DNA of 64,000 nt from Verrucomicrobium sp. BvORR106. GTDB taxonomy: Bacteria > Verrucomicrobiota > Verrucomicrobiia > Verrucomicrobiales > Verrucomicrobiaceae. The stretch spans positions 1 to 64,000 of the forward strand of contig NZ_BATR01000191.1 in assembly GCF_000739655.1 (NCBI RefSeq), read 5' to 3'. Both the position numbers and the translations under genes were made by a program. Positions 373 to 60,546 of this stretch are shown one piece after another (the first letter of the stretch is position 1; each line of letters begins with the position of its first letter). The notes beneath the pieces are model-generated. The model worked only from the letters and a program-made list of their open reading frames with translations. It had not been told where the DNA came from and did no database searches.

Positions 373-552
373 GAACCAAGAACCAAGAACCAAGAACCAA
401 GAACCAAGAACCAAGAACCAAGAACCAAGAACCAAGAACCAAGAACCAAGAACCAAGAACCAAGAACCAAGAACCAAGAACCAAGAACCAAGAACCAAGA
501 ACCAAGAACCAAGAACCAAGAACCAAGAACCAAGAACCAAGAACCAAGAACC
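373..552. repeat. 7-bp tandem repeat (AACCAAG)n, about 25 copies
   Basis: An essentially perfect run of the heptamer AACCAAG fills about 180 bp between the family A repeat and the 3' end of the small PSCyt1 gene. The sequence at the left edge of the window (around 71-80) has one isolated GAACCAAGAG. All three frames are open because a 7-bp unit cycles the frame, which produces artificial peptides rich in LGSWFLV or PRTKNQE. Slipped-strand copy-number variation is likely. Confidence 0.95.
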
Positions 553-963: not shown

Positions 964-1114
964 GGGTGGAAAGAGGCGTGTGATTGTGAGATTGAAACTC
1001 GTGTCGCAACAAGCTCAGACTGATCATCCTCCGTAACGCAATTGATGTCAATTCGACATAATTTGAGCCGTCTCGACAGTTTCTTTGAGGGCTGCTAATA
1101 CTCGGGGAATTTCC

Positions 1115-2095
1115 ATGAAATTCCACCCTCTCCTCCTCGTCGCAAGTGTCCTCCCCTTCGTCCCAGGAGCGTGGGGGCAAACGACTGAAACCGCCTCAAG
1201 CGATTTGGCAGGGCATTACCAAATCACGGTCAGGTCGAACTCCTCAAAGGTGGTGGGAACGAGCTTCGTCCGCCCCTCAGTGGCAGCGGGTCATCTGGAG
1301 ACCACCAGTGCGAACACCCTGGAAGACACAGATGCCGACTTCACGGCCACGTTGTCTCCCGGTGTGGCATACTGGGTGGAGATCACCAGCGGGGGCAACA
1401 AGGGCCTGGCCAGCATCGTGAGTTCCTTCACGCAGCATGGGTTGGTCACAGAGGATGACCTGTCCGCTTTCATCAGTGCCGGGGACACCTATGCCGTGCG
1501 CCCCGCCCACACCATCGCGAGCCTGTTCGGCACCACCAACTCCGCGGGCCTTCGCGCGGGAACCAGTGCGACCAACGCCGACAGGGTGGAGGTGCCGGAT
1601 GGGCAGGGTGGCCTGGCCGTGGTGTACTACAACAACACCGCTCCTGCAGGGTGGCGCACCAGCACCACGGGCACGGACGACGCGTCGAACCTCCCGGTTT
1701 ATCACGTGGACGCGCTCAACATCACCCGCAACGCCAATTCCAACCTGAAACTCGTCTTCGCCGGGTCACTCCGCAAGAACCCTACCTACTACGGGATTCT
1801 GCCGGGGCTGAACTATGTGAACGTGAACTACCCGGTGGGCTCCACGCTGGGGAACAGCACTCTGCAAACGCAGGTGAAGCAGGGCGACAGCACCACGGGA
1901 GACCTGGTATGGATCCCCAACAGCGCCACAGGCTACAAGAAGTACTACTGCAATGCCGGTGTCTGGCGCCTAGTTAGCGGAAACAACGCCGATAGAGGCA
2001 CCGTCGCACTTACGCCGGGCATCATCATTGAGCGACGGGATGCCGCCACCAACCTGCAAATCCCTCCCAACGCCGCCCTCTACGGCGGGCTCTAG
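1115..2095 (+). CDS. TIGR02597-like exported protein, first tandem copy
   Basis: A 326-residue protein starting at the ATG with a GGGGA element just upstream; a TTG 30 bp earlier is open but lacks such a site. Residues 1-22 form a signal peptide ending GAWGQ. The mature part resembles the roughly 350-residue family I know as TIGR02597, found in Verrucomicrobia and of unknown function. Motifs shared with the next gene include YWVEITSG, GDTYA.RP.HTIASLFG, DGQGG, PAGWR, YHVDA, GDST..LVWIPN and GYKKYY, and both end in YGGL. It is probably secreted or surface-located. The spacing of 54 bp to the paralog suggests one transcript. Confidence 0.75.
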   Translation: MKFHPLLLVASVLPFVPGAWGQTTETASSDLAGHYQITVRSNSSKVVGTSFVRPSVAAGHLETTSANTLEDTDADFTATLSPGVAYWVEITSGGNKGLASIVSSFTQHGLVTEDDLSAFISAGDTYAVRPAHTIASLFGTTNSAGLRAGTSATNADRVEVPDGQGGLAVVYYNNTAPAGWRTSTTGTDDASNLPVYHVDALNITRNANSNLKLVFAGSLRKNPTYYGILPGLNYVNVNYPVGSTLGNSTLQTQVKQGDSTTGDLVWIPNSATGYKKYYCNAGVWRLVSGNNADRGTVALTPGIIIERRDAATNLQIPPNAALYGGL

Positions 2096-2149: not shown

Positions 2150-3199
2150 ATGAAATCCCTGAGCCTTGTGTCCTCCCGCCCCGTTGTCCCCACCGTCATG
2201 GGCATGGCCCTCATAACTTGCCTGCTCCCGATCTTCCCCGGAGCCCGGGCTCAGGCGCAGGAGGTGACCACTGCCCAGTCCAATCTGGCCGGCTTTCACA
2301 AGGTGACGGTCCGGGCGCTGTCCTCCCGGCTTCTGGGCGTCAGCTTTGTGCGACCCACGGCCGTCGCGGGCCATCTGGAAAGTACCGCCGCCAACACCCT
2401 GACGGACACGGACGTGGACTTCACCACCGCACTCACAGCAGGCACGGAGTACTGGGTGGAGATCACCAGCGGTGCCCACCAGGGCATGGCCTCCAGCGTG
2501 ACAGGCTTCGCGGCAAACTCGGTCACCACGGAGGATGACCTCTCCCTCTACAGCGCGGCAGGCGACACCTATGCCATCCGGCCGCTGCACACGATCGCCA
2601 GCCTCTTTGGAGCCACCAACTCGGCTGGGCTCCGCACAGGCAATAGCGCCAGCAGTGCGGATACCATTGTCATCCCCGATGGCCAGGGCGGCACGCAGAC
2701 CATTTATTACAGCACCTCCAGTCCGGCGGGCTGGCGCAACGCCGCCACAGGCACCGCCGATGCCTCCGCCACCCCGGTGTATCATGTCGATGCCATCACC
2801 ATCACCCGCCGCTGGCTGACGAATCTGAACCTCACCTTTGCGGGTGAACTCCGGACACGTCCCACGCATTATGTCGTCCAGCCCGGGCAGAATTCTGTGA
2901 GCGTGAACCAACCAGTGAGCGTCACCCTGGCCAACAGCACGCTGCAAGATCAGGTGCGCCAGGGCGACAGCACCACCGCCGATCTAGTCTGGATCCCCAA
3001 TACCACGACCACCGGTTACAAGAAGTACTACTACACCCCAGAGGCCCCGCCCCTCACGGCAGGCTGGAAACTGGTGGGCGGAGACAACACCGATCGCGGC
3101 ACCATCCCCCTGGGCACCGGCATCGTGATCGAGCGCCGCGATCCCGCCACGGCGACGATGAAAATTGTGCCCGATCCCGCAGTGTACGGCGGGCTTTGA
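2150..3199 (+). CDS. TIGR02597-like exported protein, second tandem copy
   Basis: A 349-residue paralog of the preceding gene, aligned along its whole length with the same motif order. The longer N-terminal signal region has a hydrophobic core at about residues 14-32 and a cleavage site near GARAQA. The two copies differ mainly in the N-terminus and by a short insertion (PEAPPLTAG region) near the C-terminus. The tandem arrangement indicates gene duplication. The function is not known. An imperfect hairpin at 3258-3287 follows and may end the transcript. Confidence 0.75.
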   Translation: MKSLSLVSSRPVVPTVMGMALITCLLPIFPGARAQAQEVTTAQSNLAGFHKVTVRALSSRLLGVSFVRPTAVAGHLESTAANTLTDTDVDFTTALTAGTEYWVEITSGAHQGMASSVTGFAANSVTTEDDLSLYSAAGDTYAIRPLHTIASLFGATNSAGLRTGNSASSADTIVIPDGQGGTQTIYYSTSSPAGWRNAATGTADASATPVYHVDAITITRRWLTNLNLTFAGELRTRPTHYVVQPGQNSVSVNQPVSVTLANSTLQDQVRQGDSTTADLVWIPNTTTTGYKKYYYTPEAPPLTAGWKLVGGDNTDRGTIPLGTGIVIERRDPATATMKIVPDPAVYGGL

Positions 3200-30473: not shown

Positions 30474-33400
30474 CTACGGCAGGAACCTCTTGCTGTGGAT
30501 CACCCGGAATCGATACAACGTATCCAGCGGAACGTAGTCGGAAGCGGAGGCGGACTTGGTGGCATAGTCCTGGAGACGGGAATCTTCGGGATCAATGTAC
30601 CGTTCCAACACCGTGGATCCGCGCGTTTCTGATACCACCAAGTCGTTGGTTTCATTCCACTTGGCCCAGGCGTCCGGGCTGTCGCCGCGACTGCGCACCG
30701 CCTGCCGGAGAGCCTGCACGCGATAGTGCACGGTGTAGGTGTTCGACTTGGTCGTGAGGCGAGGGTAGAGCGTCGCATACGGGCGCTCTTTCATATTGTC
30801 ACCGGTGAGCGTGTTGGTCGTGTTCCAGTACGTGGCCATGTTTGCCAAAGTGGCCCCCTGCGGCACCAGATAGAGATCACAGAGTTCGGTGGGAGACTTG
30901 AAGATATCGTTCGCCGCGAAGCGGGTTTTGAACTGCTCCAGCGTCTGGGCGGCATCAATTTCCAAACGGAAGTTGGTGGCGGTGCCGGTCTTGTAGTTGT
31001 TGGCGTTTGCCAGGGGGACAGCAGCCACCCGCTCACTGCGCAGCAGGGCTCTCAGCCCGGTGCTGCGCTCGATGTAGGTGAAGGGCATGATCTGGTAGTT
31101 CATGTTGATCTTGCCCGCAGTGGAGAAGGGCTCACTGATCGCGTAGGGCTCCACCACCGGCATCCAGAACAGGTCGAGCAAAAGATGATCCTTGGGGGAC
31201 TGCGCCCCCACATGCGTCGCCACTCCTGTGTTGGGACGGAAGAGCAGCGTACGCCATGGGACGTTGGCCTTCACCTGGCTGGGCAATGAGCCGAACATCA
31301 CCGGGGACATCACCTGACGGTTGGGCGAGAAGAAGGTAGGCCCCGCCGTCTCATGCCGCTCTGTGTAGGAGAAATACGGGATGGCATCCGCGGCCCCATC
31401 ATAGGCGCTGCCCTCGTCCGGCTTGTTGATGTAGGCGCCATCCGGCACCGGCCCCAGACCATTGTCAAAGTCCCCCGAGTCACTGCTCCACGGTCCGCCA
31501 TCGGCATCAGCTCTGAAGGGCACGTCTGGACGCCTGCTGCTGGCATAAGCCGCCGTCTTCACCAGCTTGCCGGTCATGGTGGCGCCATAGATCATGTCTG
31601 CCCCCAACACCTCCGTCATGGAATGGGCCAGCAGCTTGGAGGTGTCGTTGTAGTACTGGTGCGGCTTGAACACGCCTTCCGGCACATCACGCTGGGCGGC
31701 GATCAGACGATAGTCACCGTGGAAAGGCACCAGGGTGCGCACCGTGTCATACTTGCGGATCGGGTTGCCACTCGCCTCCCCTCCTCCGGCCGGGTTGGTG
31801 TTGCGCCCTGGCTCCTCACCCACGTAGTAGATGCGCCCGTAGTTGGGGGCCGGAGCTCCGGTGATGGCTCCATCGCGTGAGAACGTCCACCAGTTGCGAG
31901 CCTCAGTCACCGAGTTGCTGGTGTGCATCCACGTCTGGCCGGAACTGGCACCGTCAATGGCCAACTGCGGAGCCGGGAACTCCGTGACGGAAGTGTGCCC
32001 GGTAAAGTTCATGTGCAGGGATTGAACCAGCTGAGTGGAATTCACCGTGCTGGTGCCGCCGGCATAGATGTTGATGGTGATGGGCCCGGATGACTCCAGG
32101 AACATGCGGGCAGCCGCCCCCGGTTTGATGGTGACCGGCGCGCTCACGAAGGGATAGGTGTTGTCCATGTTCGTCGAGGCTCCATCCTTGGCCATGTTCC
32201 CCCGGGCGGGAAGACCCCGGCCGCGCATGTGCGTGCGGAAGCCTCCCAGCCCGCCCCAGCCGCGACCGTGAATGGTGCCCGCAGAGGTCTGGGTGATGTG
32301 CATGCGTGCCGTGGCGGGAAACCCCATCGGCTGGGCCGCCCCGTCTGCCGCCCCTTTGAGCGACAGCTGGTTCAGCCCCACGACTTCAATCTGGATGTCC
32401 CGGCAGAGGGCCGTCCAGCCATGGGCTGCGGAGAAAAGTTCGAGGAGCAACAATGCCTCAACCCGCTTCTCACTGTTCGCGAGAGGCTGCACCAGCGTGC
32501 GATTCGCCGTCTTGTTGCTCGCCACTTTGGCCACATTGGTGGCATCCGACTGCGCAGGGTCACCACTGCCATCCGCGGTGCAGATGAAATGCAGCCCCAC
32601 CTCGGAAATGGTGTCAAAGCGTCCAAAGCCCATCGTGCTCTTCGTCACATCCGCGGGACTTGCGGGATCAGGACGGTAGATGGGAGCTGCCTGACCATGA
32701 CCTGCGACCCCGCTGGATTCCCCGGAGCGTCCTTTCGTGAACTGCTTCCCTTTTGTGGGATAACTCCAAGGCAGCGATTGCGGTTCAATGCTGTCGTCAA
32801 AGAGGTTCGTGGAACGGATGTAGTCGAAGATCTCCGTCAGGATCTGATCACGATCCAGAGGGTATTTCTGGTCAAACTTGCCGCCGAATCCGGGGATTTC
32901 CCGCGAGGTCAGGTTTTGAAGATAGGTATAGAGCTCCTGGTTCCTGGAAATATTGGCGAGATCCGAGGTGACAGAGAGGGGATCGTTGCGCTTGAAGAAG
33001 TACTCCTTCGTCACACCGGCAATCCGATATTGCGAGCAGAAGGCGATGAGCTCATCAAAAGGGCTGCGATACTTGGCCGCCGCGGTGTTCGTGAGGTCGT
33101 GAATGGGCCAGATCGAGACCCTCGGGGTATTGAAGAGGGTCACCTCCGGGGCCCGGCTGTGGGCGGTGAGGAAGAACCGGCTGCGCTCCAGCAGCGGCTT
33201 CACCACCGCTTTGTCCATACCCGCCTGCGTGGTGCGGTCTGGATTGTAGATCAATTCATCCACCGAGGCGTAGAGCCGGTCCGTGTCCAACAGGACCTTG
33301 CCCGGCGCCCACACCGTGCCCCCCTTGGACCCGCCGGTCTGCAGCCGGGGCGCGATCAATCCAATCTGTTCACGCGTGAGGCTGGGAATGACCGCGCTGA

Positions 33401-34334
33401 GGTAAGTGGTGGCGGGATGGCCTGGATAGCGCTGGTACTCCAGCTGCGCTGGCTGGCGCAGTGCGAGTTTGTTCTTCTCGAAGTCCGTGAAAAGATGCGG
33501 CACGTCCCAGTAGGAGCCCGGTTCCGTAGCCGCCAGGCCCCATTCGTCACCGGCGGCGGTGTTGATGTTGACCTTGCTGGATTCATCGTCCGTCCAGAAC
33601 GCCACTCGTCCCACAACCGGGTTGGTTTTGGAAGGTGACTTGGCGGTTCCAGGAGCCCACGTCACTTCCGACGCAGCGCTGCCAGAGGGGCTGGTGAGTG
33701 TGCCGTCCTGCAGGACATAAAGCCACCTCACGGGCATCGGAGCCGGATTGTCTTCCGCATTGGTGCCTTTCACGGGAGCGCTCGTGATGGCAAATCCTTG
33801 TGTCACGGGGGCAACCGTGGCCGCGGTCGGATCCATGATAGGGTAGATCCGGGCACCTGCCAGACTCTTCACCGGCAGGTTGAGGTCCGTGTACAGAGCT
33901 GGCAGCGTGTGCCAATCCGCCGGCACATCAGCGGCAGGAGAGAACGCCCCGTCGGCCGGAGTCCAGGACATGCGCTCCGCAGAATAGAGCTTGTAGTAGG
34001 CCAGAGGGGCGCTGGATGCCCCGCTGCTGGTGCCACTGGCAACTCCATAGGTCCGGATCATGCCCGGTTGAGAGGCCCAGGCGATGTTGGAGCCCCGCGT
34101 GGTAGCCTCCCGGATCTGTGCCATCACAATGTTGGTAGCGGTCTCCGCCAGCTCCCTCCCCCTGCTCCCGCTGTCAGCAAAACGCGACGCCTTGGTCTCC
34201 GTGGTGACACTGCCGAAGAATGCCAGAATCAGGGCACTGAGCAGTACGAGGAAACTAAGCACGAGCACAAGCGCCATGCCTTTGCGGTACCGCAGGATGG
34301 AAAGGATTCGGGAAGAGGGAAGAGGCCAATGCAT
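30474..34334 (-). CDS. Verru_Chthon cassette protein A (large pseudopilin-associated protein)
   Basis: 1286 residues, the last gene of a D-B-C-A cassette. The N-terminus has a PilX-like type IV filament leader, RKGMALVLVLSFLVLLS, with a hydrophobic helix at about 20-42 followed by FFGSVTTETKASRFADSG. The large remainder is beta-rich with many Ser, Thr, Pro and Gly and no catalytic motif I recognise. It matches what I know as TIGR02600, always found with three small pseudopilins. Export through a type II/IV-like machine is inferred; it may form the large minor-pilin-like tip or a surface protein. Confidence 0.88.
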   Translation of the reverse strand: MHWPLPSSRILSILRYRKGMALVLVLSFLVLLSALILAFFGSVTTETKASRFADSGSRGRELAETATNIVMAQIREATTRGSNIAWASQPGMIRTYGVASGTSSGASSAPLAYYKLYSAERMSWTPADGAFSPAADVPADWHTLPALYTDLNLPVKSLAGARIYPIMDPTAATVAPVTQGFAITSAPVKGTNAEDNPAPMPVRWLYVLQDGTLTSPSGSAASEVTWAPGTAKSPSKTNPVVGRVAFWTDDESSKVNINTAAGDEWGLAATEPGSYWDVPHLFTDFEKNKLALRQPAQLEYQRYPGHPATTYLSAVIPSLTREQIGLIAPRLQTGGSKGGTVWAPGKVLLDTDRLYASVDELIYNPDRTTQAGMDKAVVKPLLERSRFFLTAHSRAPEVTLFNTPRVSIWPIHDLTNTAAAKYRSPFDELIAFCSQYRIAGVTKEYFFKRNDPLSVTSDLANISRNQELYTYLQNLTSREIPGFGGKFDQKYPLDRDQILTEIFDYIRSTNLFDDSIEPQSLPWSYPTKGKQFTKGRSGESSGVAGHGQAAPIYRPDPASPADVTKSTMGFGRFDTISEVGLHFICTADGSGDPAQSDATNVAKVASNKTANRTLVQPLANSEKRVEALLLLELFSAAHGWTALCRDIQIEVVGLNQLSLKGAADGAAQPMGFPATARMHITQTSAGTIHGRGWGGLGGFRTHMRGRGLPARGNMAKDGASTNMDNTYPFVSAPVTIKPGAAARMFLESSGPITINIYAGGTSTVNSTQLVQSLHMNFTGHTSVTEFPAPQLAIDGASSGQTWMHTSNSVTEARNWWTFSRDGAITGAPAPNYGRIYYVGEEPGRNTNPAGGGEASGNPIRKYDTVRTLVPFHGDYRLIAAQRDVPEGVFKPHQYYNDTSKLLAHSMTEVLGADMIYGATMTGKLVKTAAYASSRRPDVPFRADADGGPWSSDSGDFDNGLGPVPDGAYINKPDEGSAYDGAADAIPYFSYTERHETAGPTFFSPNRQVMSPVMFGSLPSQVKANVPWRTLLFRPNTGVATHVGAQSPKDHLLLDLFWMPVVEPYAISEPFSTAGKINMNYQIMPFTYIERSTGLRALLRSERVAAVPLANANNYKTGTATNFRLEIDAAQTLEQFKTRFAANDIFKSPTELCDLYLVPQGATLANMATYWNTTNTLTGDNMKERPYATLYPRLTTKSNTYTVHYRVQALRQAVRSRGDSPDAWAKWNETNDLVVSETRGSTVLERYIDPEDSRLQDYATKSASASDYVPLDTLYRFRVIHSKRFLP

Positions 34335-34370
34335 GGGACTAGAAGGGATGGTTGGGACAAGACTGGCGGC

Positions 34371-35402
34371 CTAGTTGGCCTGTTCACGACTCCACCTGGC
34401 TCCTCGCAGGCTGACTTCCGTGCTAAACACCCGGTAGTTGACCTTCATGTTGGCCAGTGTGGTCTCGAGGGTTTGCAGATCGCTCTTGCGGCGGGCTGGC
34501 GTCGCGTCCTTGAACAGGGTGCCAAGCCCGAAATCAGGCGGTGAGCCTCCTTGCTCCAGACGAACGGCAGACGGCTCATCAATGGCGACCATGATCACCT
34601 CCACCACCGGAGGCAGCTGGTGGCGGCTGTTCAACTCGGCACCTGACGCTGCCTGCCCCACCGTGGTGGAATCATAGGCGTAGGCAGGCGAAAGCCGGTT
34701 GCCGTCAGGATCCACCCGCAAGTCCCCGGCAGGGCCCTGGGACGGAAGCTTGGGGAGAAATGTCAGGCAGATGATGTTGCTGGCGATGACGTGCGAGTTG
34801 GCCCCGCCAGCAACGGTCTGGAGCCACTGGTTCGGCTGCTGGTACACCTGAAGACTCTCCGTTGGCTCCATGAACTCCATGAGCCGGAAGCGGTGGCGTT
34901 TCGTCCCGGGCATGTAGGCGGGCCGGTCGGAATCCTCGCGGAACTCGAGGTAGTATCCCCACGTGTTGATCAGGTTCTCCAGACCTGCATTGTCAGCAGC
35001 CTTCGTGAACCCCAGCGGGGCCTGGAAAAAAAGCGCCTGCCCCGGGAAAGTGGCGACCGCCCCTCCGACCAGCGTGGAGGCCTCGCCAGACTGAAACCGA
35101 AGCTCAGACTGCCGGCCGTAAGAGGCTGGCACGAAGGTGGCGGGGTCCGAGGCCTTGCGGGAGGAGCCGTCCGCCGCGTAGTAGTCATAATAAGTGTTGA
35201 GCGTGGCCTGGGCCAGATTGCGGCTGATCGCCTCGAAGGCATTGCGGGCCTCCCGGAACTGATTGGACTTCCCCGTCGTATCCCTCCAAACGGCACTGGT
35301 CTGTCCTGTGATCGTGACCATCACGATCAGAAGAATCGAGACGATGGTCATGGAAACCAGCAGTTCAATAAGGGTGAAGGCACGCGCTTTCATGATCATC
35401 AT
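34371..35402 (-). CDS. Verru_Chthon cassette protein C (pseudopilin-like)
   Basis: 343 residues. A class III prepilin signal lies at the N-terminus: KARAFTLIELLVSMTIVS, with cleavage expected before F and the E at +5. The body contains FREARNAFEAISRNLAQATL, a GspJ/PilW-like helix, then a beta-rich part. The length is much greater than a typical major pseudopilin. The start overlaps the end of gene B by 4 bp, so they are coupled; gene A starts 36 bp after it. Corresponds to the family I know as TIGR02599. Confidence 0.88.
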   Translation of the reverse strand: MMIMKARAFTLIELLVSMTIVSILLIVMVTITGQTSAVWRDTTGKSNQFREARNAFEAISRNLAQATLNTYYDYYAADGSSRKASDPATFVPASYGRQSELRFQSGEASTLVGGAVATFPGQALFFQAPLGFTKAADNAGLENLINTWGYYLEFREDSDRPAYMPGTKRHRFRLMEFMEPTESLQVYQQPNQWLQTVAGGANSHVIASNIICLTFLPKLPSQGPAGDLRVDPDGNRLSPAYAYDSTTVGQAASGAELNSRHQLPPVVEVIMVAIDEPSAVRLEQGGSPPDFGLGTLFKDATPARRKSDLQTLETTLANMKVNYRVFSTEVSLRGARWSREQAN

Positions 35403-35947
35403 CGGGCCCGCGCCACGTGGCTGTTGTAGGTGTAGAACGGCAGGCCGCCTTGCGGATCCACCGTCTGGGCAAGCGGATCCGTGGCCGAGGCCGGCAGCAG
35501 AACAATGTTCCTATTGTTGGGATTGGTGACCACCTGCACCGTCACGGTGGCCAGGGAGGCATTGGCCCCGGTGGTGTTTCCAGAGGGCAGTTGGCTGGAG
35601 GGGACCACCCGGGTGAGCACATGAAAAATGGCATCCTGTGGAACGGGCTGCTCCACCCCCTGATCATTGAAATAACGCCACGGTTTCACAACCGGCGTGG
35701 TGCCGGTGCCACTGGCACCCACCAAAACATCGTAATCCGTCTGCATCGCCTCCTGGATCAATCGCTGGGCTATCTGTGAAGAGACGCTGACCGTCATGGA
35801 GTCACGAAACATCGTGAGCCCCGACGGGAGCAAACCGAAGAGCATGATGATGCCGATGGAGGCGATGCCTGCAGCAATGGCGACTTCAACAAGGGAGAAG
35901 CCACCCGGCCCGGCAGTAGCGACTGCGGGAGGTCGTGAGGTTTTCAT
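35399..35947 (-). CDS. Verru_Chthon cassette protein B (pseudopilin-like)
   Basis: 182 residues. The prepilin motif is GPGGFSLVEVAIAAGIAS, with cleavage before F and glutamate at +5; it precedes a helix that runs to about residue 45. SSQIAQRLIQEAMQ follows, then a beta-rich C-terminal half (VTVQVVTNPN). The 19-residue leader is longer than in the other members. It lies 12 bp after gene D and overlaps gene C by 4 bp. Corresponds to the family I know as TIGR02598. Confidence 0.88.
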   Translation of the reverse strand: MKTSRPPAVATAGPGGFSLVEVAIAAGIASIGIIMLFGLLPSGLTMFRDSMTVSVSSQIAQRLIQEAMQTDYDVLVGASGTGTTPVVKPWRYFNDQGVEQPVPQDAIFHVLTRVVPSSQLPSGNTTGANASLATVTVQVVTNPNNRNIVLLPASATDPLAQTVDPQGGLPFYTYNSHVARAR

Positions 35948-35959
35948 GATGTACGGGGG

Positions 35960-36607
35960 TTAACCGGGGCGGTAGAGACGCAACGATCCGTTGTAAGGAT
36001 CTATCTGCACTGCGGCATGGTTGGGAGGCGGGCTGCCTGTTTCCCGGCTGCCATGCAGAGTCAGAAACCAGCTCCCCGCCCCCAGGTCCGTGGACCCATC
36101 CGGACGGAAGCGCAGGGCATAAGTCTTGTAGCTGGAGCCGATGCCTCGGGGCAGGCTTTGCTTGGGATCATCCGTGGTCCAGTTGGTCTTTTCCCGGCTT
36201 GTTTTCAGGAGGCTGGAGAGACTTTCGTCCTTGCTGACCACCACACCTCCTGGAAGATGCTCCACTGACCCCAAGGGGGAGGACTTGGTGTTGGTCTCGT
36301 CATAGATCACAGCCTCAAAGGCTGAAACCTCGGTAGTGGTCGCATCCCCTCTTTCGAGGCTGGCGAAATCATAAAACCGCACCTCGACCACGCGATTCTG
36401 CGTGAGGGCGGTCTGGCGGGCCAGACTGAGTCCGTCCACCACCATCTGGGTGCCGGTGGTGATCTGGTTCGCTGTAAGCACCGAGTTGGTCACGGGCACG
36501 GCAAACAGCAGCAAAATGGCCGCGATGGTGATCACGACCAAAAGCTCAATCAACGTGAAGGCCCGGCGGGACGCGTTGACACGGTGGTTCCAGGTTTGTG
36601 ATTTCAT
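35960..36607 (-). CDS. Verru_Chthon cassette protein D (GspH/GspG-like pseudopilin), first gene
   Basis: 215 residues starting at MKSQTW, chosen because GAAGGA sits a few bases upstream; ATGs 15 and 48 bp earlier are also in frame. The prepilin motif SRRAFTLIELLVVITIAA is followed by a GspH-like helix (VDGLSLARQTALTQNRVVEV). The remainder is beta-rich, ending NGSLRLYRPG. Corresponds to the family I know as TIGR02596. As first gene its upstream region should hold the cassette promoter; a TTGACA and a dyad are found there. Confidence 0.87.
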   Translation of the reverse strand: MKSQTWNHRVNASRRAFTLIELLVVITIAAILLLFAVPVTNSVLTANQITTGTQMVVDGLSLARQTALTQNRVVEVRFYDFASLERGDATTTEVSAFEAVIYDETNTKSSPLGSVEHLPGGVVVSKDESLSSLLKTSREKTNWTTDDPKQSLPRGIGSSYKTYALRFRPDGSTDLGAGSWFLTLHGSRETGSPPPNHAAVQIDPYNGSLRLYRPG

Positions 36608-36673
36608 GAATCCTTCAGCCATCGTTTGAGAGTCGGCTTTGCGCTCACATTTCAACTGGCACCCAACACTCTA

Positions 36674-36702
36674 AATTTCATCAAACCACAAGAAAATGTC
36701 AA
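36674..36702 (-). promoter_or_regulatory. Candidate promoter of the Verru_Chthon cassette
   Basis: The minus strand reads TTGACA (36702-36697), 17 bp, then GAAATT (36679-36674). The -35 is a perfect match to the sigma-70 consensus but the -10 is weak, as expected for an activator-dependent promoter. The leader to the gene D start would be about 60 nt. Confidence 0.35.
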
Positions 36703-36712
36703 TACACTGTAT

Positions 36713-36738
36713 ATTATCTTTCGAAGGGAAAAGATAAT
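36713..36738. promoter_or_regulatory. Dyad ATTATCTTT-N8-AAAGATAAT upstream of the cassette
   Basis: Perfect 9-bp inverted arms at 36713-36721 and 36730-36738. They lie 10 bp upstream of the candidate -35 of the cassette, a typical activator position, in a locally AT-rich stretch unlike the rest of the window. The binding protein is unknown. Confidence 0.5.
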
Positions 36739-37674: not shown

Positions 37675-39813
37675 TCACCGGGGTTTAGGAAGATCCCGCA
37701 ACTGCAAGCCCGCTTTCTTCTCTGCATCCCACGCGAACTTCTCATTTAATGACCGGGCGAACTCCCATGGCGACTTGTCGTCGGCGTAGATGATCACACG
37801 GGTGCGCTGGGCGGCCATGGCCGCCGCTTGGGGCAGGTCCAGATACTTCAACACATTCAGGTACACCGGGCCGTCCCGATGGGATGTGGGAACCTCATGC
37901 AGATCCAGACGGGTGATACCATCTTCGAAGAGGCTGGCATAGACCGCATTCCCGGCCTGATGGCGGCTGGCCTGGATCCACAGTGACGCTTGTTTGAGCG
38001 CGTCCACGCTCCGCAATCCCCGAATAGCGCAGCGGACATCCCAGACCTGCTGCCCTTCCAGGGTCTGCCCCAGCAGGTAGTAGCGACGAAGCTGATGAGT
38101 GCGTGTCTTCACGTCAGGAGACAATGCCCGCGGGCCCACGCCGCGCGGGCAAAAGTAGATCATGCCCCACTTCCTATGGGTGAGCATGTCGCGTTCCTCA
38201 GCAAACGCTTTGTCATCGGGCTTCGCTGCTACCTTTTGTCCCACGACGGCGGGGAAGGCTGCGCCAAAGGTGTTGCCCACCTCCTGCCAGCCCTCGTCAT
38301 CCAGCGCGTGCAGCACCATCAGCTCCAGATCCTCGGGCTTGAACGCGGCCCCGTGGAGCAGAAACAAATCCCCGCCCCCTTCTGGATCGCGATCAGATGA
38401 AGGAGCGAGCTTCCAGGCGGTCAGCGTGACATCGCGGTTCGTGGTGACAACAGGATCGGAGAGCTTTGTCGCAGGCTCTCCCAGACTGCTCCAGCCGCCA
38501 AAACACCTCGACCGCAGGGCCTCCATCCAGCCCTCACGCATTTTGTCCCAGGCTGCCTGATCCTGTGGCGTTTCCACCGCACCTGCCAGAGGAACGAACA
38601 CCTCATCCACGCGGGTGTTGATCTGATCGGCAGGCAGTTCCTGGAAGACGCGGAGCTTCTCCATGGGGATGCCTTTCACGGCCGGGGTATCTGTGGTGTC
38701 CATCAGGCCCGCTCCCTGGAGATGACGCATCATCCAGTGAAACTCACCCGTATTGAGCGGCTGCATGTCTTTGTGCGGCCCCTCTGCGATGTGCAGACCG
38801 ATGTTCCCCTCGGCCCCCAGGGCCTTGTAAACCCGGCGGGTGGACTGGTAGATGTTGAATACGCCATCGATGGGGAAGATGCCGTCCTTGTCCGTGTTCG
38901 TGACCAGCAGGGCCCGCGGAGCGACGAGTGCGGCAAGACGGTCATAGTCCCACCGGAAAGTGTTCACGAAAAACATGCAGTCGCAGTGCCCGGCGACACA
39001 ACCGTCCACCACGTGGTTTCGCAAGGTGGTGATGCCAGCCGTGGGCACCGCACACTTGATCCGCTCATCCAGGGCGGCCACAAACCAGGAATAAGCACCG
39101 CCACCGCTCCTCCCCGCCACGCCAAAGCGGGTCTTGTCCACCTCGGGGCGAGTCTCCAGATAATCCAGCGCACGGATGCCCGCCCAGGCCTCCACCCCGG
39201 CCGGCGTGTACCCTCGGGCCATCCACCACCATTTCCCCAACCGATAAGTGCCATGGTGCTCGCCAGGGATTTCACCCAATTGCACGGTATCGATAATGAG
39301 GCAGACGAACCCATGCTTCGCATACCAGACCCCGTGGTGCTCATAGCCGGACTTGTTGCCATAGCTCACGCCATCCTTTGTCATGCTGGAGTGACCGCAG
39401 ACGTAAAGCACGGTGGGCAGAGGTTTTTCCACCACCTTGGGCCGGTAGAGGTTCGCCGTGACGTACAGCCCAGGCCGGGACTGGTAGTGCAGGTTCTCCA
39501 CCACAACGCCCTCGTGCTCGAACTCACCCGTCTTCGTAACTTTTAGATCGGTGCGCGCTGCGGTCAGATCCAGCCCCAGCATCTCCGCCAGTTCCGCCCG
39601 GCTCTGGTCGCGGAAGGCGTTCCAGGTGTCTTTCCTGACTTGGGCAACAGCTGAAGCATCCTCAATCAACGAGACCTGTCGCTCAAAGTAGGCCGCCTGG
39701 TGGCCCTCTCCCTTCTTTTCATCCGCCGCGCCTGACAACGATGGGCTCAGCAGGACGCCACATGCCGCAGCTACCATCAGCAAGTTCCACGAGAGGAAGG
39801 AGGGTGAACGCAT
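37675..39813 (-). CDS. Exported large alpha/beta hydrolase, acetyl-xylan-esterase-like
   Basis: 712 residues with a signal peptide (about 1-29, ending LSGA). The hydrolase part (about 80-370) has LPTVLYVCGHSS, the nucleophile elbow GRSGGGAYSW, a candidate acid in TNTDKDGIFP and a histidine in AEGPHKDMQ, so the triad looks complete. A second region (about 400-700) has another alpha/beta-like pattern without a clear nucleophile, so the protein may be a tandem fusion with one active and one inactive domain. Substrates are probably plant or algal glycan esters; this is inferred from the adjacent sulfatase, which is divergent. Confidence 0.78.
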   Translation of the reverse strand: MRSPSFLSWNLLMVAAACGVLLSPSLSGAADEKKGEGHQAAYFERQVSLIEDASAVAQVRKDTWNAFRDQSRAELAEMLGLDLTAARTDLKVTKTGEFEHEGVVVENLHYQSRPGLYVTANLYRPKVVEKPLPTVLYVCGHSSMTKDGVSYGNKSGYEHHGVWYAKHGFVCLIIDTVQLGEIPGEHHGTYRLGKWWWMARGYTPAGVEAWAGIRALDYLETRPEVDKTRFGVAGRSGGGAYSWFVAALDERIKCAVPTAGITTLRNHVVDGCVAGHCDCMFFVNTFRWDYDRLAALVAPRALLVTNTDKDGIFPIDGVFNIYQSTRRVYKALGAEGNIGLHIAEGPHKDMQPLNTGEFHWMMRHLQGAGLMDTTDTPAVKGIPMEKLRVFQELPADQINTRVDEVFVPLAGAVETPQDQAAWDKMREGWMEALRSRCFGGWSSLGEPATKLSDPVVTTNRDVTLTAWKLAPSSDRDPEGGGDLFLLHGAAFKPEDLELMVLHALDDEGWQEVGNTFGAAFPAVVGQKVAAKPDDKAFAEERDMLTHRKWGMIYFCPRGVGPRALSPDVKTRTHQLRRYYLLGQTLEGQQVWDVRCAIRGLRSVDALKQASLWIQASRHQAGNAVYASLFEDGITRLDLHEVPTSHRDGPVYLNVLKYLDLPQAAAMAAQRTRVIIYADDKSPWEFARSLNEKFAWDAEKKAGLQLRDLPKPR

Positions 39814-56712: not shown

Positions 56713-57642
56713 CTAGGTCCACCAGTGCTCGCCGCGCACTTCATTGAGCTCCACCCGGGCACCACCGCGGCGCTTGCTCTCGTCCGCGGCGGCCATGAAG
56801 GCGTAGATCTCCAGCGTCTCGGCAGGCGATACTGGAGCCACGCCTGATCCAAAGAAAGCGACGATCCGTTTCAGCAACGGCGTGTAGTCCCCGACATCCT
56901 GTTGCTCCACCACCGCCGCGTCGCCGAACTTGATCACTTTGTACTCTGCGGGCCAGCGATGGAGCGCATGAAGAGTGCCCACCTTTTCATCCTTCCACAA
57001 CCCGGTCACCACGGACAGATGCGGCGTTGTGGTGCGTTGCACACTCTGACAACCGTTGCCCAGCACCGTGAACAACGCCTCGGTGGGATGGATGCCGTAA
57101 AAGAACAGATCCGGATGGGTGGGCTCGATCGGGGCCGGCCCATAGGAGACCGCCCCCTGGACAACTCCTGCATCGGTCTCGACCAGAGCTTGGATGCCAG
57201 GATACCAACGCAAGGCGGAACTGCTGAAGAGCGGCGTGCCCGTTTCCGCGGCGAGCTCATAGATGCGCTCCGCCTCCGCCAAACTGCCGGCCACGGGCTT
57301 GTCCAGAAACACCGGCAATCCCGCCCGCAACACGGGTGCCACCTGTTCGGGGTGGGCCCGGCCATCCAGGCTGCACAGCAGGACCGCGTCACATCGTTCC
57401 AGCAGGGCTTCAATGCTCCCGACCATCTCCACACCATGGCGGGTCTGTAGTTCCTCCACGAACCCAGCCGCCCGGGTCTGGCTCCAGGGCATATCCGGGC
57501 TCACGGTGGGATGCGCCGCTACCACCCGGGCTCCGGCCACATGACCAGAGTGCCCGGCGTCATTCAGGCGGGCCGTGAACTCGATCGCGTGCGACGTATC
57601 GCAACCGATGATGCCGATGCGAAGTTCGCGGGGGTCACTCAT
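56713..57642 (-). CDS. Gfo/Idh/MocA-family dehydrogenase
   Basis: 309 residues from MSDPRE; the ATG lies 8 nt inside the end of the upstream beta-helix gene, indicating translational coupling. The Rossmann motif is IGIIGCDTSHAIEF, which departs from the usual GxGxxG (GCDTSH). FLDKPVAGSLAEAERI carries the EKP-like DKP. GIHPTEALFTVLGNG matches the active-site region. A sugar or uronate derivative released by the beta-helix protein is a plausible substrate but this is inference. It ends 1 bp from oppC. Confidence 0.85.
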   Translation of the reverse strand: MSDPRELRIGIIGCDTSHAIEFTARLNDAGHSGHVAGARVVAAHPTVSPDMPWSQTRAAGFVEELQTRHGVEMVGSIEALLERCDAVLLCSLDGRAHPEQVAPVLRAGLPVFLDKPVAGSLAEAERIYELAAETGTPLFSSSALRWYPGIQALVETDAGVVQGAVSYGPAPIEPTHPDLFFYGIHPTEALFTVLGNGCQSVQRTTTPHLSVVTGLWKDEKVGTLHALHRWPAEYKVIKFGDAAVVEQQDVGDYTPLLKRIVAFFGSGVAPVSPAETLEIYAFMAAADESKRRGGARVELNEVRGEHWWT

Positions 57643-60262
57643 TGCGGATGTCGAGATCGTCCAGGCTGAAGGAGGTGGCCACATTGGCGTCGCTCACGAA
57701 CACCATGCTCTCGAGTTCTCGAAGGTCTGGGTTCTTGAATGCCAGTTCCCTAAACTCTTTACGGGTCCCATCCGGCAAGGTCACGGTCAGATCCCATTTC
57801 GCAGCACTGGACTCGCCCAGGGCGGCACGGATCTCAATCCCCACCCATTGGGCGGGTTCAAGCTTCAACAACTCCTTGCCAGCCACCTTGAGCGAGCCTT
57901 TGCGAATCTCGAGGCTCGGACCTGCCCGATAGGGCGCATTCTTGTCCCTCCACTCATGGGTGAACTCAGCCTCCAGCTCCAGCCAGAGATTGAACCGGAC
58001 GGTGGTGGTGCCCGTTTTGTGATTCAGATCAAAGGAGAGATGCGGCTGGTAACGCTGGGTGAGCCCGGGGGCATCCTGAAACTTCAGGCTGCGATTGCCG
58101 CTCTTTGCCCGATCCTCACTGACCAGGATGGTGCCGCCCTTCTCATCCGTGCTGACGCGGCCATTCCACATCGTCTTGCCCACAGGAGTGCTTTCAAAGT
58201 CATCATGCAGGGTGAACTTGGGCAGCTCTTCGCGCTCCAGTTCCAGAGGCTTCAGACTGGCGGCGAGTTGTTTCCAGGCATCGTCACCCGTGACGCCAGC
58301 CTGGCTGTAGTCAAATGGCTTGAAGCCCATGGCCAGAGCGGGTGACTCCGGCTTCAGATGGAAGTCGCCTTTCGCCACATCCACAAAGAGCGGGTCAGCG
58401 ATCTTTGACCCCCGGTCATAGCCCTGCTTCTGCCACGCGGCGAAGTCCCCGCCCCCGAAGTCGATCGGACGCTTGCTGGCATCCCAATACAGATTCTGCT
58501 CCATGCGCACTTTGGGGCTCTTCCACTGGCCGTAGAGAAGAAGACCGCTGTCGAAGTACACGATGTTGTTCTGGTAGCTGAAGGAGAGATGCTCCTCCGT
58601 GCGGGAGCGCTGAATCTGAGCCTCCTCGCCAAAGGCGAAGATGTTGTTCCGGATGATGTTGTCCTTCCCGTAGTGCTGGTGGAATCCCGCGTGGCGCGTG
58701 TGGTGGACCAGATTGTTTTCCATGAGCACACCGGAGCTCCCTTCGTCCGTGTACAGTCCCCAGCCGCCGTAGCGGTAGCCGTTCACGTGATGGGCGTGGT
58801 TGTTGGACACGGTGGTGCCGGAGGCAGGTCCGAGGAGATACACCGCCCCCATGTCGCTCAACACTCCATACCCCAGGTGGTGGATGTGGTTGAACTCAAT
58901 CTTGTTGTGGTGAGCCACGCTCTCCGCATAGCCCCATACCCAGCCAGCCGAAACACCGCTGTAGAAGAAGTCCCCGATGTCATTGTGCGTGATGGTGTTC
59001 TCACCGCTGTGCGTGATGAAGACCCCCACGCTGCCCATGAAATAACGCCCGCCGGTGTGAATGATGTTGTTGTGCGCCGTGATGTGGTGGGTGCGCCCAC
59101 GGGGATCCGGGTCCAGCGGCACATCGCCAATCCGCACGCCTCCCGCACCCATGTCGTGCAGATAGGACCGGGTGATGGCGCTGTCTGTGCACCCCTTGCG
59201 GAACCAGATGGCGTAGATGCCGGTGTGGGCGATCTCGCACGAATCGAACGTCACATTATTGACGCCGTCCAGCATCACCACCGCCGGCACCTTGGAGTCC
59301 GCCTGGGAGTCGATGTGCCCGTCCTTGCCCAGCTCAAAACGGCTGTGCTTAAACGCCAGTCCTTTGAAGTGAAGATTCTGGACGAACTCGCCCTTGTCCG
59401 GAGCGCCCTGAATCTGGATCAGCTGATCCGCGACCGGAGCCACCGCCTCCACTTTGCCCAGTTCCTCACCTGGAAGCGGCTTGTAGAAGAGCTTCCCAGA
59501 CCGGTCCAGAAACCACTCCCCGGGGGCGTCCAGCGCCGACTTCATGTTCTCCAGGAAATAACGCTGCCGGGTCTCATAGACCAGGAAGGGCCAGCGCGAG
59601 TCGGCGGTGAACTGCACATAGCCTGCCTCAGGTTTCAGGAAAGCCACCCGGTGACGGGCGATCTGCCAGGTCTGGAACACCACCACCTCGGCATCCTTCA
59701 GCTCCCCCGCCTCCAGCTTGCCCAGCGGGGCCAAGTCGCCCACCTCTGCATAGAAGGCGGTGAACTCCGGCTTGCCCATGGGAGGAGCCCCTTCCGGAGC
59801 CTCCAGAGCGGGACGCGTGGCGTGGAAGTAGCGGGTGTTGGGCGTGCGGGCCCGGGTGGCACGCCGGCCATTGATCCACAGGTCCTGGAAGTACCACTTC
59901 CCTTCTTTTACCTCCGGGATCTCAGCCACCCAGGTGCCATTGCCCGCATCCTGCCACCCGGTGATGCCCCGCCCCCCGCTGATGACCGCCTTGCCGCCGC
60001 CTTCATAAGTCACGGATGCCCCGGCAGTGCCACCGTCCTCAGGACCGAAGGTCACCGGCTGAGTGATGGGATACGTGCCCGGCGCAAGTCGCACGGTGAC
60101 CGGCTCCGCCTTTCCCTTGCCCTCACCCTCCCGCCAGTTCCGCACCGCATCCCGCGCCTGCTCCAGTGTCTTCACCGGTCCATCCGGGCTGACCTGCACC
60201 TCCAGCGCGAGGAGGGAGGAAACACTGGCACTGAGGGCACAAAGCGCGACGAACGATCTCAT
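57635..60262 (-). CDS. Secreted right-handed parallel beta-helix protein, carbohydrate-active type
   Basis: 875 residues from MRSFVA (signal peptide 1-19); 29 earlier codons are open but non-signal. DGPVKTLEQARDAVRNW and VRLAPGTYPITQPVTFG are the N-terminal features of this family. Beta-helix repeats occupy about 340-640 with NNVTFDSCEIAHTGIYA, THHITAHNNIIHTGG, HHNKIEFNHIHHLG and VSNNHAHHVNGY. A C-terminal beta-sandwich (about 690-875) resembles LamG-like/DUF1080-type domains. A lyase or glycoside hydrolase role on polysaccharide is likely by fold; the active site cannot be named. Confidence 0.85.
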   Translation of the reverse strand: MRSFVALCALSASVSSLLALEVQVSPDGPVKTLEQARDAVRNWREGEGKGKAEPVTVRLAPGTYPITQPVTFGPEDGGTAGASVTYEGGGKAVISGGRGITGWQDAGNGTWVAEIPEVKEGKWYFQDLWINGRRATRARTPNTRYFHATRPALEAPEGAPPMGKPEFTAFYAEVGDLAPLGKLEAGELKDAEVVVFQTWQIARHRVAFLKPEAGYVQFTADSRWPFLVYETRQRYFLENMKSALDAPGEWFLDRSGKLFYKPLPGEELGKVEAVAPVADQLIQIQGAPDKGEFVQNLHFKGLAFKHSRFELGKDGHIDSQADSKVPAVVMLDGVNNVTFDSCEIAHTGIYAIWFRKGCTDSAITRSYLHDMGAGGVRIGDVPLDPDPRGRTHHITAHNNIIHTGGRYFMGSVGVFITHSGENTITHNDIGDFFYSGVSAGWVWGYAESVAHHNKIEFNHIHHLGYGVLSDMGAVYLLGPASGTTVSNNHAHHVNGYRYGGWGLYTDEGSSGVLMENNLVHHTRHAGFHQHYGKDNIIRNNIFAFGEEAQIQRSRTEEHLSFSYQNNIVYFDSGLLLYGQWKSPKVRMEQNLYWDASKRPIDFGGGDFAAWQKQGYDRGSKIADPLFVDVAKGDFHLKPESPALAMGFKPFDYSQAGVTGDDAWKQLAASLKPLELEREELPKFTLHDDFESTPVGKTMWNGRVSTDEKGGTILVSEDRAKSGNRSLKFQDAPGLTQRYQPHLSFDLNHKTGTTTVRFNLWLELEAEFTHEWRDKNAPYRAGPSLEIRKGSLKVAGKELLKLEPAQWVGIEIRAALGESSAAKWDLTVTLPDGTRKEFRELAFKNPDLRELESMVFVSDANVATSFSLDDLDIRNE

Positions 60263-60546
60263 GGCTCCACCATGAGTCAGGGTCGGGCGCTGCACAACCG
60301 CCGAAGCAGGGCGGAGCAAACCGGGGCAGGCACTACCCGCTCGACACAACCGCCATTTTTGTGCATCATATCACCATCAAACACCCGCAGACGAGCACGG
60401 CTCGTGGCAAGTCCGTATAAAATGACGGCAGGCAGGCACCTCACAGAATCGTCACCACATGCCTCTTCTGCCTCACTTCATCCCGTCAATGGTCTGTGCG
60501 CGACGCTGGCACGACGTCGGTCGCAGCCCCCTTGCCCCCTGAGCCT

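What the first reader, a model, noticed from the sequence alone, without database searches (positions are those of the whole stretch)
30474..36738. Complete Verru_Chthon pseudopilin cassette with no visible export machine
Four genes in order D-B-C-A carry prepilin-type leaders; A is a 1286-residue giant. No ATPase, platform protein, secretin or prepilin peptidase is near. The cassette's function is undescribed to my knowledge; it may be a dedicated minor-pilin complex that plugs into a distant type II/IV system to show or secrete the large A protein.
Basis: partly seen in the sequence, partly recalled or inferred. Interest (0 to 1): 0.7.

Follow-up and report, generated by a model that had tools for sequence, protein, structure and literature searches.

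The report
Giant-headed tip of a secretion filament
Four neighbouring genes encode what looks like the four-part tip of the filament inside a bacterial type II secretion machine, with its top subunit enlarged about fourfold; the genome carries some 20 such tips but only two clear type II machines, which suggests that a shared machine is refitted with different tips for different exported proteins.

Summary
In detail: window 36655-30474 (minus strand) carries all four NCBIfam Verru_Chthon families, order D-B-C-A, each above its curated cut-off. The cassette is intact, under strong purifying selection, and syntenic in Verrucomicrobium sp. BvORR034.

I identify it as a minor-pseudopilin tip of the GspH-I-J-K type. 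Each cassette profile best matches its counterpart in canonical Verrucomicrobiota type II operons (D=H, B=I, C=J, A=K). The model of C retrieves only GspJ structures and one GspJ-like Thermus pilin at Z above 10. A has GspK's N-terminus, lacks Glu5, and carries both GspK 'NxN' motifs, spaced ~820 residues apart instead of ~110: a GspK with a giant inserted head.

The genome has about 20 A genes but only two canonical type II loci (each with its own HIJK), several type IV-like loci, and two tandem prepilin peptidases; none lies on the window's contig.

Thirteen of 23 A-gene loci lie within 5 kb of a same-strand PATR-repeat protein (chance about 2e-9), often with PEP-CTERM and no autotransporter barrel. 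In other species neighbours are often glycoside hydrolases. The window cassette has no PATR neighbour.

Best model: interchangeable tips on a shared machine, each serving its own exported protein. Homology is well supported; machine and cargo are inferred.

The parts
35960..36655 (-). cassette protein D, 231 aa from TTG (ATG alternatives at 36622, 36607); GspH-like minor pseudopilin
   Evidence: TIGR02596 131.8 bits, above cut-off; D profile best matches canonical GspH over 158 columns, hhalign 98.1%; Glu5 present
35399..35947 (-). cassette protein B, 182 aa; GspI-like minor pseudopilin
   Evidence: TIGR02598 58.4 bits, above cut-off; B profile best matches GspI, 95.7% against 92.1% for GspJ; relatives match XpsI, GspI and PilV models
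34371..35402 (-). cassette protein C, 343 aa; GspJ-like minor pseudopilin
   Evidence: TIGR02599 401 bits; AlphaFold model pLDDT 87.7; GspJ structures and GspJ-like TTHA1219 at Z 10.1-11.1, next row Z 5.0
30474..34334 (-). cassette protein A, 1286 aa; giant GspK-like tip pseudopilin
   Evidence: TIGR02600 1007 bits; reciprocal profile hits with canonical GspK; no Glu5 and two NxN motifs
33561..33587 (-). first NxN motif of A (DESSKVNIN, residues 250-258), counterpart of the GspK motif ExxRxNxN
   Evidence: pattern in 61 of 68 A proteins; 110 of 111 ORFs with it are A/K family; position
31098..31115 (-). second NxN motif of A (GKINMN, residues 1074-1079), counterpart of the GspK motif GDGRxNxNTA
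   Evidence: both motifs in 60 of 68 A proteins, spacing 737-986 residues, median 819, against 103-123 in canonical GspK
31689..32624 (-). inserted beta-sandwich region of A's head (about residues 571-882, mapped from the relative L175 A)
   Evidence: AlphaFold model of L175 A, pLDDT 86.3, pTM 0.88; only weak structural matches, Z about 4 or less; mapping
37675..39813 (-). same-strand gene about 1 kb upstream: secreted-type esterase (glucuronoyl/acetyl-xylan type); possible functional partner only
   Evidence: PF22244, PF05448; its counterpart (90% identical) stays upstream of the cassette in BvORR034

Best explanation
The cassette encodes a four-subunit minor-pseudopilin tip of the GspH-I-J-K type (D=H, B=I, C=J, A=K). 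By analogy with known tips, the subunits would be processed by the genome's shared prepilin peptidase, assemble at the inner membrane, prime a pseudopilus and carry A's enlarged head at the top. The genome has about 20 such cassettes but few machines, and none beside this one. I therefore infer that the tips are interchangeable modules on a shared type II machine (less likely a type IV-like one), and that A's large head, inserted between the two conserved GspK motifs, confers cargo or ligand choice. For many sister cassettes the likely cargo is the neighbouring PATR/PEP-CTERM surface protein or carbohydrate enzyme. For the window cassette the cargo is unknown; the secreted esterase and sulfatase upstream are candidates. 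Shown here by computation: gene families, homology to H/I/J/K, GspJ fold of C, K motifs and insertion in A, copy number, machines elsewhere in the genome, purifying selection, PATR adjacency. Inferred: tip assembly, which machine is used, and cargo choice by A.
For: Families above cut-off. Profile-profile best partners fall on the diagonal A-K 92.8, B-I 95.7, C-J 97.1, D-H 98.1 (A-K again 94.6). The reference GspK set matches PDB GspK 5vtm_X and 3ci0_K. Of 3274 ORFs, the GspK profile hits listed were essentially canonical GspK and A proteins. NxN motifs and their spacing. Glu5 absent from A, present in most B, C, D. C model retrieves GspJ structures. About 20 A genes. Canonical type II loci at C73 and C200 with their own HIJK. 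PATR adjacency 13 of 23, P about 2e-9; no autotransporter barrel in complete PATR neighbours. Same-strand neighbours of at least 700 aa enriched, own genome p 6e-6, other genomes p 1e-5. Tip role of GspHIJK: PMC6211770. Several minor-pilin tips on one pilus machine: PMC12075869, PMC7541494.
Against: Once the first 32 mature residues are removed, profile matches become weak: only A-K and D-H keep the expected best partner, B and C do not. A's GspK core was not confirmed as a fold, because searches with the whole model return only the inserted sandwich. The window cassette has no PATR neighbour (nearest 53 kb), and many cassettes in other genomes have none. Nothing ties the cassette to a type II rather than a type IV machine beyond its subunit homology. 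The carbohydrate-enzyme association rests on a truncated tally and a classification made afterwards.
Confidence: 0.6

Rival explanations
1. The cassette is a tip of a type IV-like pilus (FimU-PilV-PilW-PilX type) that displays A's head on the surface as an adhesin or sensor, and the machine is one of the genome's PilB/PilC loci.
For: The genome has several type IV-like loci (C29, C159, C161); multiple minor-pilin tips per pilus machine are documented in Myxococcus (PMC7541494, PMC12075869); B relatives match PilV as well as GspI models; C also matches TTHA1219 of a Thermus pilin cluster.
Against: A matches GspK at the N-terminus and in both NxN motifs, and no PilX or PilY1 family appeared in the scans of A. 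The eight genomes in which A passes the family cut-off all have a GspD-type secretin match at E below 1e-80.
Confidence: 0.22
2. The cassette serves mainly to export or display A itself: A's head is the functional surface protein and neighbouring genes are incidental.
For: The head is about 700 residues larger than in GspK; some A genes stand alone or in tandem (L069, L078, L202, L208); the window cassette lacks a giant neighbour.
Against: PATR adjacency in the window's genome, always on the same strand, is far above chance, and on the A tree the PATR-neighbour label changes at least 14 times, so the link arose or was lost repeatedly.
Confidence: 0.14
3. Most cassettes are redundant paralogous copies in decay without present function.
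For: High copy number and variable gene order; one A gene on C43 appears split into two frames.
Against: The window cassette is intact and under strong purifying selection against BvORR034: dN/dS A 0.033, C 0.049, D 0.094, B 0.108, similar to the neighbouring aminotransferase at 0.038.
Confidence: 0.04

Closest known systems
[quoted passage not shown]
   Same: Four prepilin-type genes in H-I-J-K order; each cassette profile best matches its counterpart; C has the GspJ fold; A lacks Glu5 and carries both GspK NxN motifs.
   Different: A is 1286 residues against roughly 300-430 for the GspK proteins used here, with the extra mass between the two motifs; the cassette stands apart from any type II core; about 20 copies per genome; gene order varies among copies.
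Verru_Chthon cassette (NCBIfam TIGR02596, TIGR02598, TIGR02599, TIGR02600)
   Same: All four families present above curated cut-offs.
   Different: A plain member. The library offers only the family names; the H-I-J-K assignment and the neighbour associations were worked out here.
Interchangeable minor-pilin Tips of the Myxococcus Kil (Tad) pilus and the three minor-pilin/PilY1 clusters of its type IVa pilus (PMC12075869, PMC7541494)
   Same: Several minor-pilin cassettes per machine; in the Kil case the larger subunit exposes a variable domain at the tip.
   Different: Those are pilus machines; the subunits here are type II-like with a GspK-like top subunit, and copy number is far higher. A similarity of working, not of membership.
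Type V autotransporter passengers (PATR repeats)
   Same: Neighbouring large proteins of sister cassettes carry PATR beta-strand repeats.
   Different: No C-terminal autotransporter barrel was found in the complete PATR neighbours scanned; several end in PEP-CTERM instead.

Membership tests
Verru_Chthon cassette | Proteins A, B, C, D each above the NCBIfam cut-off, in one cluster | tested here: met
   clustered at 30474-36655
Type II minor pseudopilin tip (GspHIJK) | Four contiguous genes whose profiles best match H, I, J, K in that order | tested here: met
   hhalign diagonal, full-length profiles
Type II minor pseudopilin tip (GspHIJK) | The same best matches with the N-terminal helix removed | tested here: inconclusive
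   A-K 9.8% and D-H 9.4% remain best; B and C do not separate
Type II minor pseudopilin tip (GspHIJK) | GspJ fold of the J subunit | tested here: met
   C model: 3cfi_B Z 11.1 (rmsd 3.3, 152 aligned), 5vtm_W 11.0, 3ci0_J 10.6; next row Z 5.0
Type II minor pseudopilin tip (GspHIJK) | K subunit lacks Glu5 and carries two NxN motifs | tested here: met
   no Glu at +5 in 64 A proteins; both motifs in 60 of 68; motifs seen in most, not all, of the canonical GspK proteins used
Type II minor pseudopilin tip (GspHIJK) | GspK fold of the K subunit | tested here: inconclusive
   whole-model search of a 1190-aa relative dominated by the inserted domain
Type II minor pseudopilin tip (GspHIJK) | Fold of H and I subunits | not tested
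Type II minor pseudopilin tip (GspHIJK) | Type II core (E, F, D, G) and prepilin peptidase in the genome | tested here: met
   C73 and C200 loci; peptidases at C76
Type II minor pseudopilin tip (GspHIJK) | Assembly on a GspG pseudopilus and effect on secretion | not testable with these tools
   needs experiment
Type IVa pilus minor pilin complex (FimU-PilV-PilW-PilX-PilY1) | PilX-type subunit | tested here: inconclusive
   no PilX model hit for A in NCBIfam or Pfam; absence is weak evidence
Type IVa pilus minor pilin complex (FimU-PilV-PilW-PilX-PilY1) | PilY1 gene beside the cassette | not tested
   the neighbouring genes scanned are not PilY1, but PilY1 was not searched for genome-wide
Type V autotransporter (for the PATR neighbours) | C-terminal beta-barrel translocator | tested here: not met
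   no barrel family at E 1e-3 in about seven PATR neighbours with complete C-termini

The most novel reading that the evidence does not exclude
A type II secretion machine whose substrate choice is set by about 20 exchangeable tips: each cassette supplies its own GspHIJK set, the giant GspK head selects its cargo, and barrel-less PATR/PEP-CTERM giants and carbohydrate enzymes reach the surface this way in Verrucomicrobiota.
Probability: 0.35. Interest if true: 0.82.

Novelty: new variant of a known kind. Interest (0 to 1): 0.6.

Why it matters
How type II systems choose their substrates is a long-standing open question (my own knowledge). Here natural copy number offers a direct test: about 20 tip sets, many of them matched to a neighbouring export candidate, and only two canonical type II loci. 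If the model is right, it assigns a function to four families named only as cassette proteins, suggests how barrel-less PATR proteins leave the cell, and may tie this expansion to polysaccharide breakdown, a major role of Verrucomicrobiota.

Tried and rejected
Sequence-profile search of solved structures: nothing for A; mainly N-terminal pilin helices for C and D, and for B only such helices plus unrelated weak rows. Whole-model fold searches with A listed no pilin entry; they matched only the inserted sandwich at Z about 4 or less and do not test the core. The phylum-wide link between A and GspD is uninformative because 283 of 289 genomes have a secretin match. TIGR02600 at E<=1e-3 in 159 of 289 genomes mostly reflects short N-terminal matches; only 8 genomes pass the cut-off. 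A genome search for TIGR02597 found nothing although one copy lies in the window, so that search is insensitive. The paper library has no mention of 'Verru_Chthon'; most subscription journals are not held. Decay of the window cassette was rejected by dN/dS. My script used 14 PATR-adjacent loci; a recount gives 13, and one search corrects the probability.
Full report
Observation. The four ORFs lie on the minus strand in the order D (36655-35960), B (35947-35399), C (35402-34371), A (34334-30474), tightly packed, with B and C overlapping by four bases. Each passes the NCBIfam cut-off of its Verru_Chthon family. B, C and D have a prepilin leader with Glu at +5. A has a leader of the GspK kind without Glu5. 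D and C have Ala rather than Gly before the predicted cleavage site, which prepilin peptidases can tolerate (own knowledge).

Where it comes from. The genome, G000, has 8.69 Mb in 209 contigs. The best match of the cassette in GTDB genomes is Verrucomicrobium sp. BvORR034 (95% amino-acid identity of A), where D-B-C-A and the esterase gene upstream are kept. Against this relative dN/dS is 0.033 for A, 0.049 for C, 0.094 for D and 0.108 for B, against 0.038 for the neighbouring aminotransferase. The cassette is therefore maintained, not decaying.

Machines. The genome has six large PF00437 ATPases plus PilT-sized ones, six loci with PF00482, thirteen secretin matches and a tandem pair of A24 prepilin peptidases at C76. 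Reading these loci shows two canonical type II clusters: C73 (E, F, G, H, I, J, K, then a secretin) and C200 (E, K, L, M, D, F, G, H, I, J). Each has its own HIJK. Other loci (C29, C159, C161) look type IV-like; gene letters here rest on order, size and leader sequences as well as family hits.

What the cassette is. I gathered canonical GspH, I, J and K proteins from Verrucomicrobiota type II operons and compared profiles with the four cassette families drawn from 56-68 loci. Best partners fall on the diagonal: A-K 92.8%, B-I 95.7%, C-J 97.1%, D-H 98.1%. With the first 32 mature residues removed, only A-K and D-H remain best, both weak, so much of the signal is N-terminal. The K reference set is sound: its profile matches 5vtm_X at 5.5e-24 and 3ci0_K at 2.3e-13. 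Run over 3274 ORFs, the K profile hits canonical GspK and A proteins and essentially nothing else; the A profile in turn hits most canonical GspKs at E 0.1 to 3e-7.

Anatomy of A. Canonical GspK has two motifs, of the form ExxRxNxN and GDGRxNxNTA, 103-123 residues apart in the sequences here that show both. A has DESSKVNIN at residue 250 and GKINMN at 1074. Both are found in 60 of 68 A proteins with a median spacing of 819. The first pattern is almost confined to this family: 110 of 111 ORFs that carry it are A/K. So about 700 extra residues sit between the two motifs. The model of a 1190-residue relative (L175; pLDDT 86.3, pTM 0.88) shows a long N-terminal helix, inserted beta-sandwich material and C-terminal strands. 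Fold searches with it match only the insert, weakly, so the GspK assignment of the core rests on sequence.

Fold of C. The model of the window's C (pLDDT 87.7) retrieves GspJ structures from several bacteria and the GspJ-like Thermus pilin TTHA1219 at Z 10.1-11.1; the next row has Z 5.0 (PMC5131608).

Copy number and order. Twenty-three A loci, some of them cut by contig ends, are present in the genome. Order varies: A-B-C-D, D-B-C-A, B-C-D-A, B-C-A-D, with B directly before C in most. More distant Verrucomicrobiota carry shorter A-like proteins in D..D-B-C-A clusters, which narrows the size gap to GspK.

Neighbours. In the window's genome 13 of 23 A loci have a PATR-repeat match within 5 kb, all on the same strand; about 1.8 are expected, P about 2e-9. 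Two of the 13 share one PATR gene. Several of these proteins end in PEP-CTERM, and complete ones lack an autotransporter barrel. Two exosortase genes pass the family cut-off. In other genomes, same-strand neighbours of at least 700 aa are enriched (22 of 83 against 62 of 701, p 1.2e-5) and include GH2, GH3, GH5, GH36, GH38, GH106 and heparinase-like proteins. A size-matched tally points to carbohydrate use near cassettes but is truncated, so only suggestive. On the A tree the PATR-neighbour label changes at least 14 times.

The window cassette itself has no PATR neighbour. About 1 kb upstream is a same-strand esterase, followed by a sulfatase and a sensor kinase with F5/8 C domains. Its sister cassette in BvORR034 (L214) does have a PATR gene directly downstream.

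Mechanism. GspHIJK form the pseudopilus tip: K on top, I-J as core, H at the base (PMC6211770). Multiple minor-pilin cassettes serving one pilus machine are documented in Myxococcus (PMC7541494, PMC12075869). The simplest reading is that Verru_Chthon cassettes are exchangeable tips on a shared, probably type II, machine. Assembly, the partner machine and cargo choice are inferred. I found no paper naming these cassettes in the library searched. Haft and colleagues first met PEP-CTERM in Verrucomicrobium spinosum, with 65 copies (PMC1569441), and a 2026 study reports 67 PulG-like pseudopilins in Verruconatronum and one pseudopilin up on alginate (PMC13274419).

Verdict. Real, conserved, a new variant of a known kind. 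Interest comes from the giant GspK, the copy number and the cargo link, which together make a substrate-choice question testable.

Noticed in passing
window 373-552: Perfect 7-base tandem repeat (GAACCAA, 25.7 copies).
   Followed up: no
window 1085-2095 and 2150-3199 (+): Two adjacent similar secreted-type proteins; the second matches TIGR02597 (51.4 bits, cut-off 50), an uncharacterised family numbered next to the cassette families.
   Followed up: partly
window 57635-60349 (-): 904-residue ORF with parallel beta-helix repeats (TIGR03804).
   Followed up: no
contig C19 beyond the window, L068 and L069: Two further A genes on the same contig at about 82.7-86.7 kb and 92.8-97.0 kb, flanking a PATR/PEP-CTERM gene.
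   Followed up: partly
L071 6091-10823 (C43): A gene split into two overlapping frames, possibly a frameshift or assembly error.
   Followed up: no
L153 (G232), L202, L208: Two or three A-like giants in tandem.
   Followed up: no
L154, L156, L160, L161, L165: Distant Verrucomicrobiota have several D-like pilin genes in a row ahead of B, C and A.
   Followed up: partly
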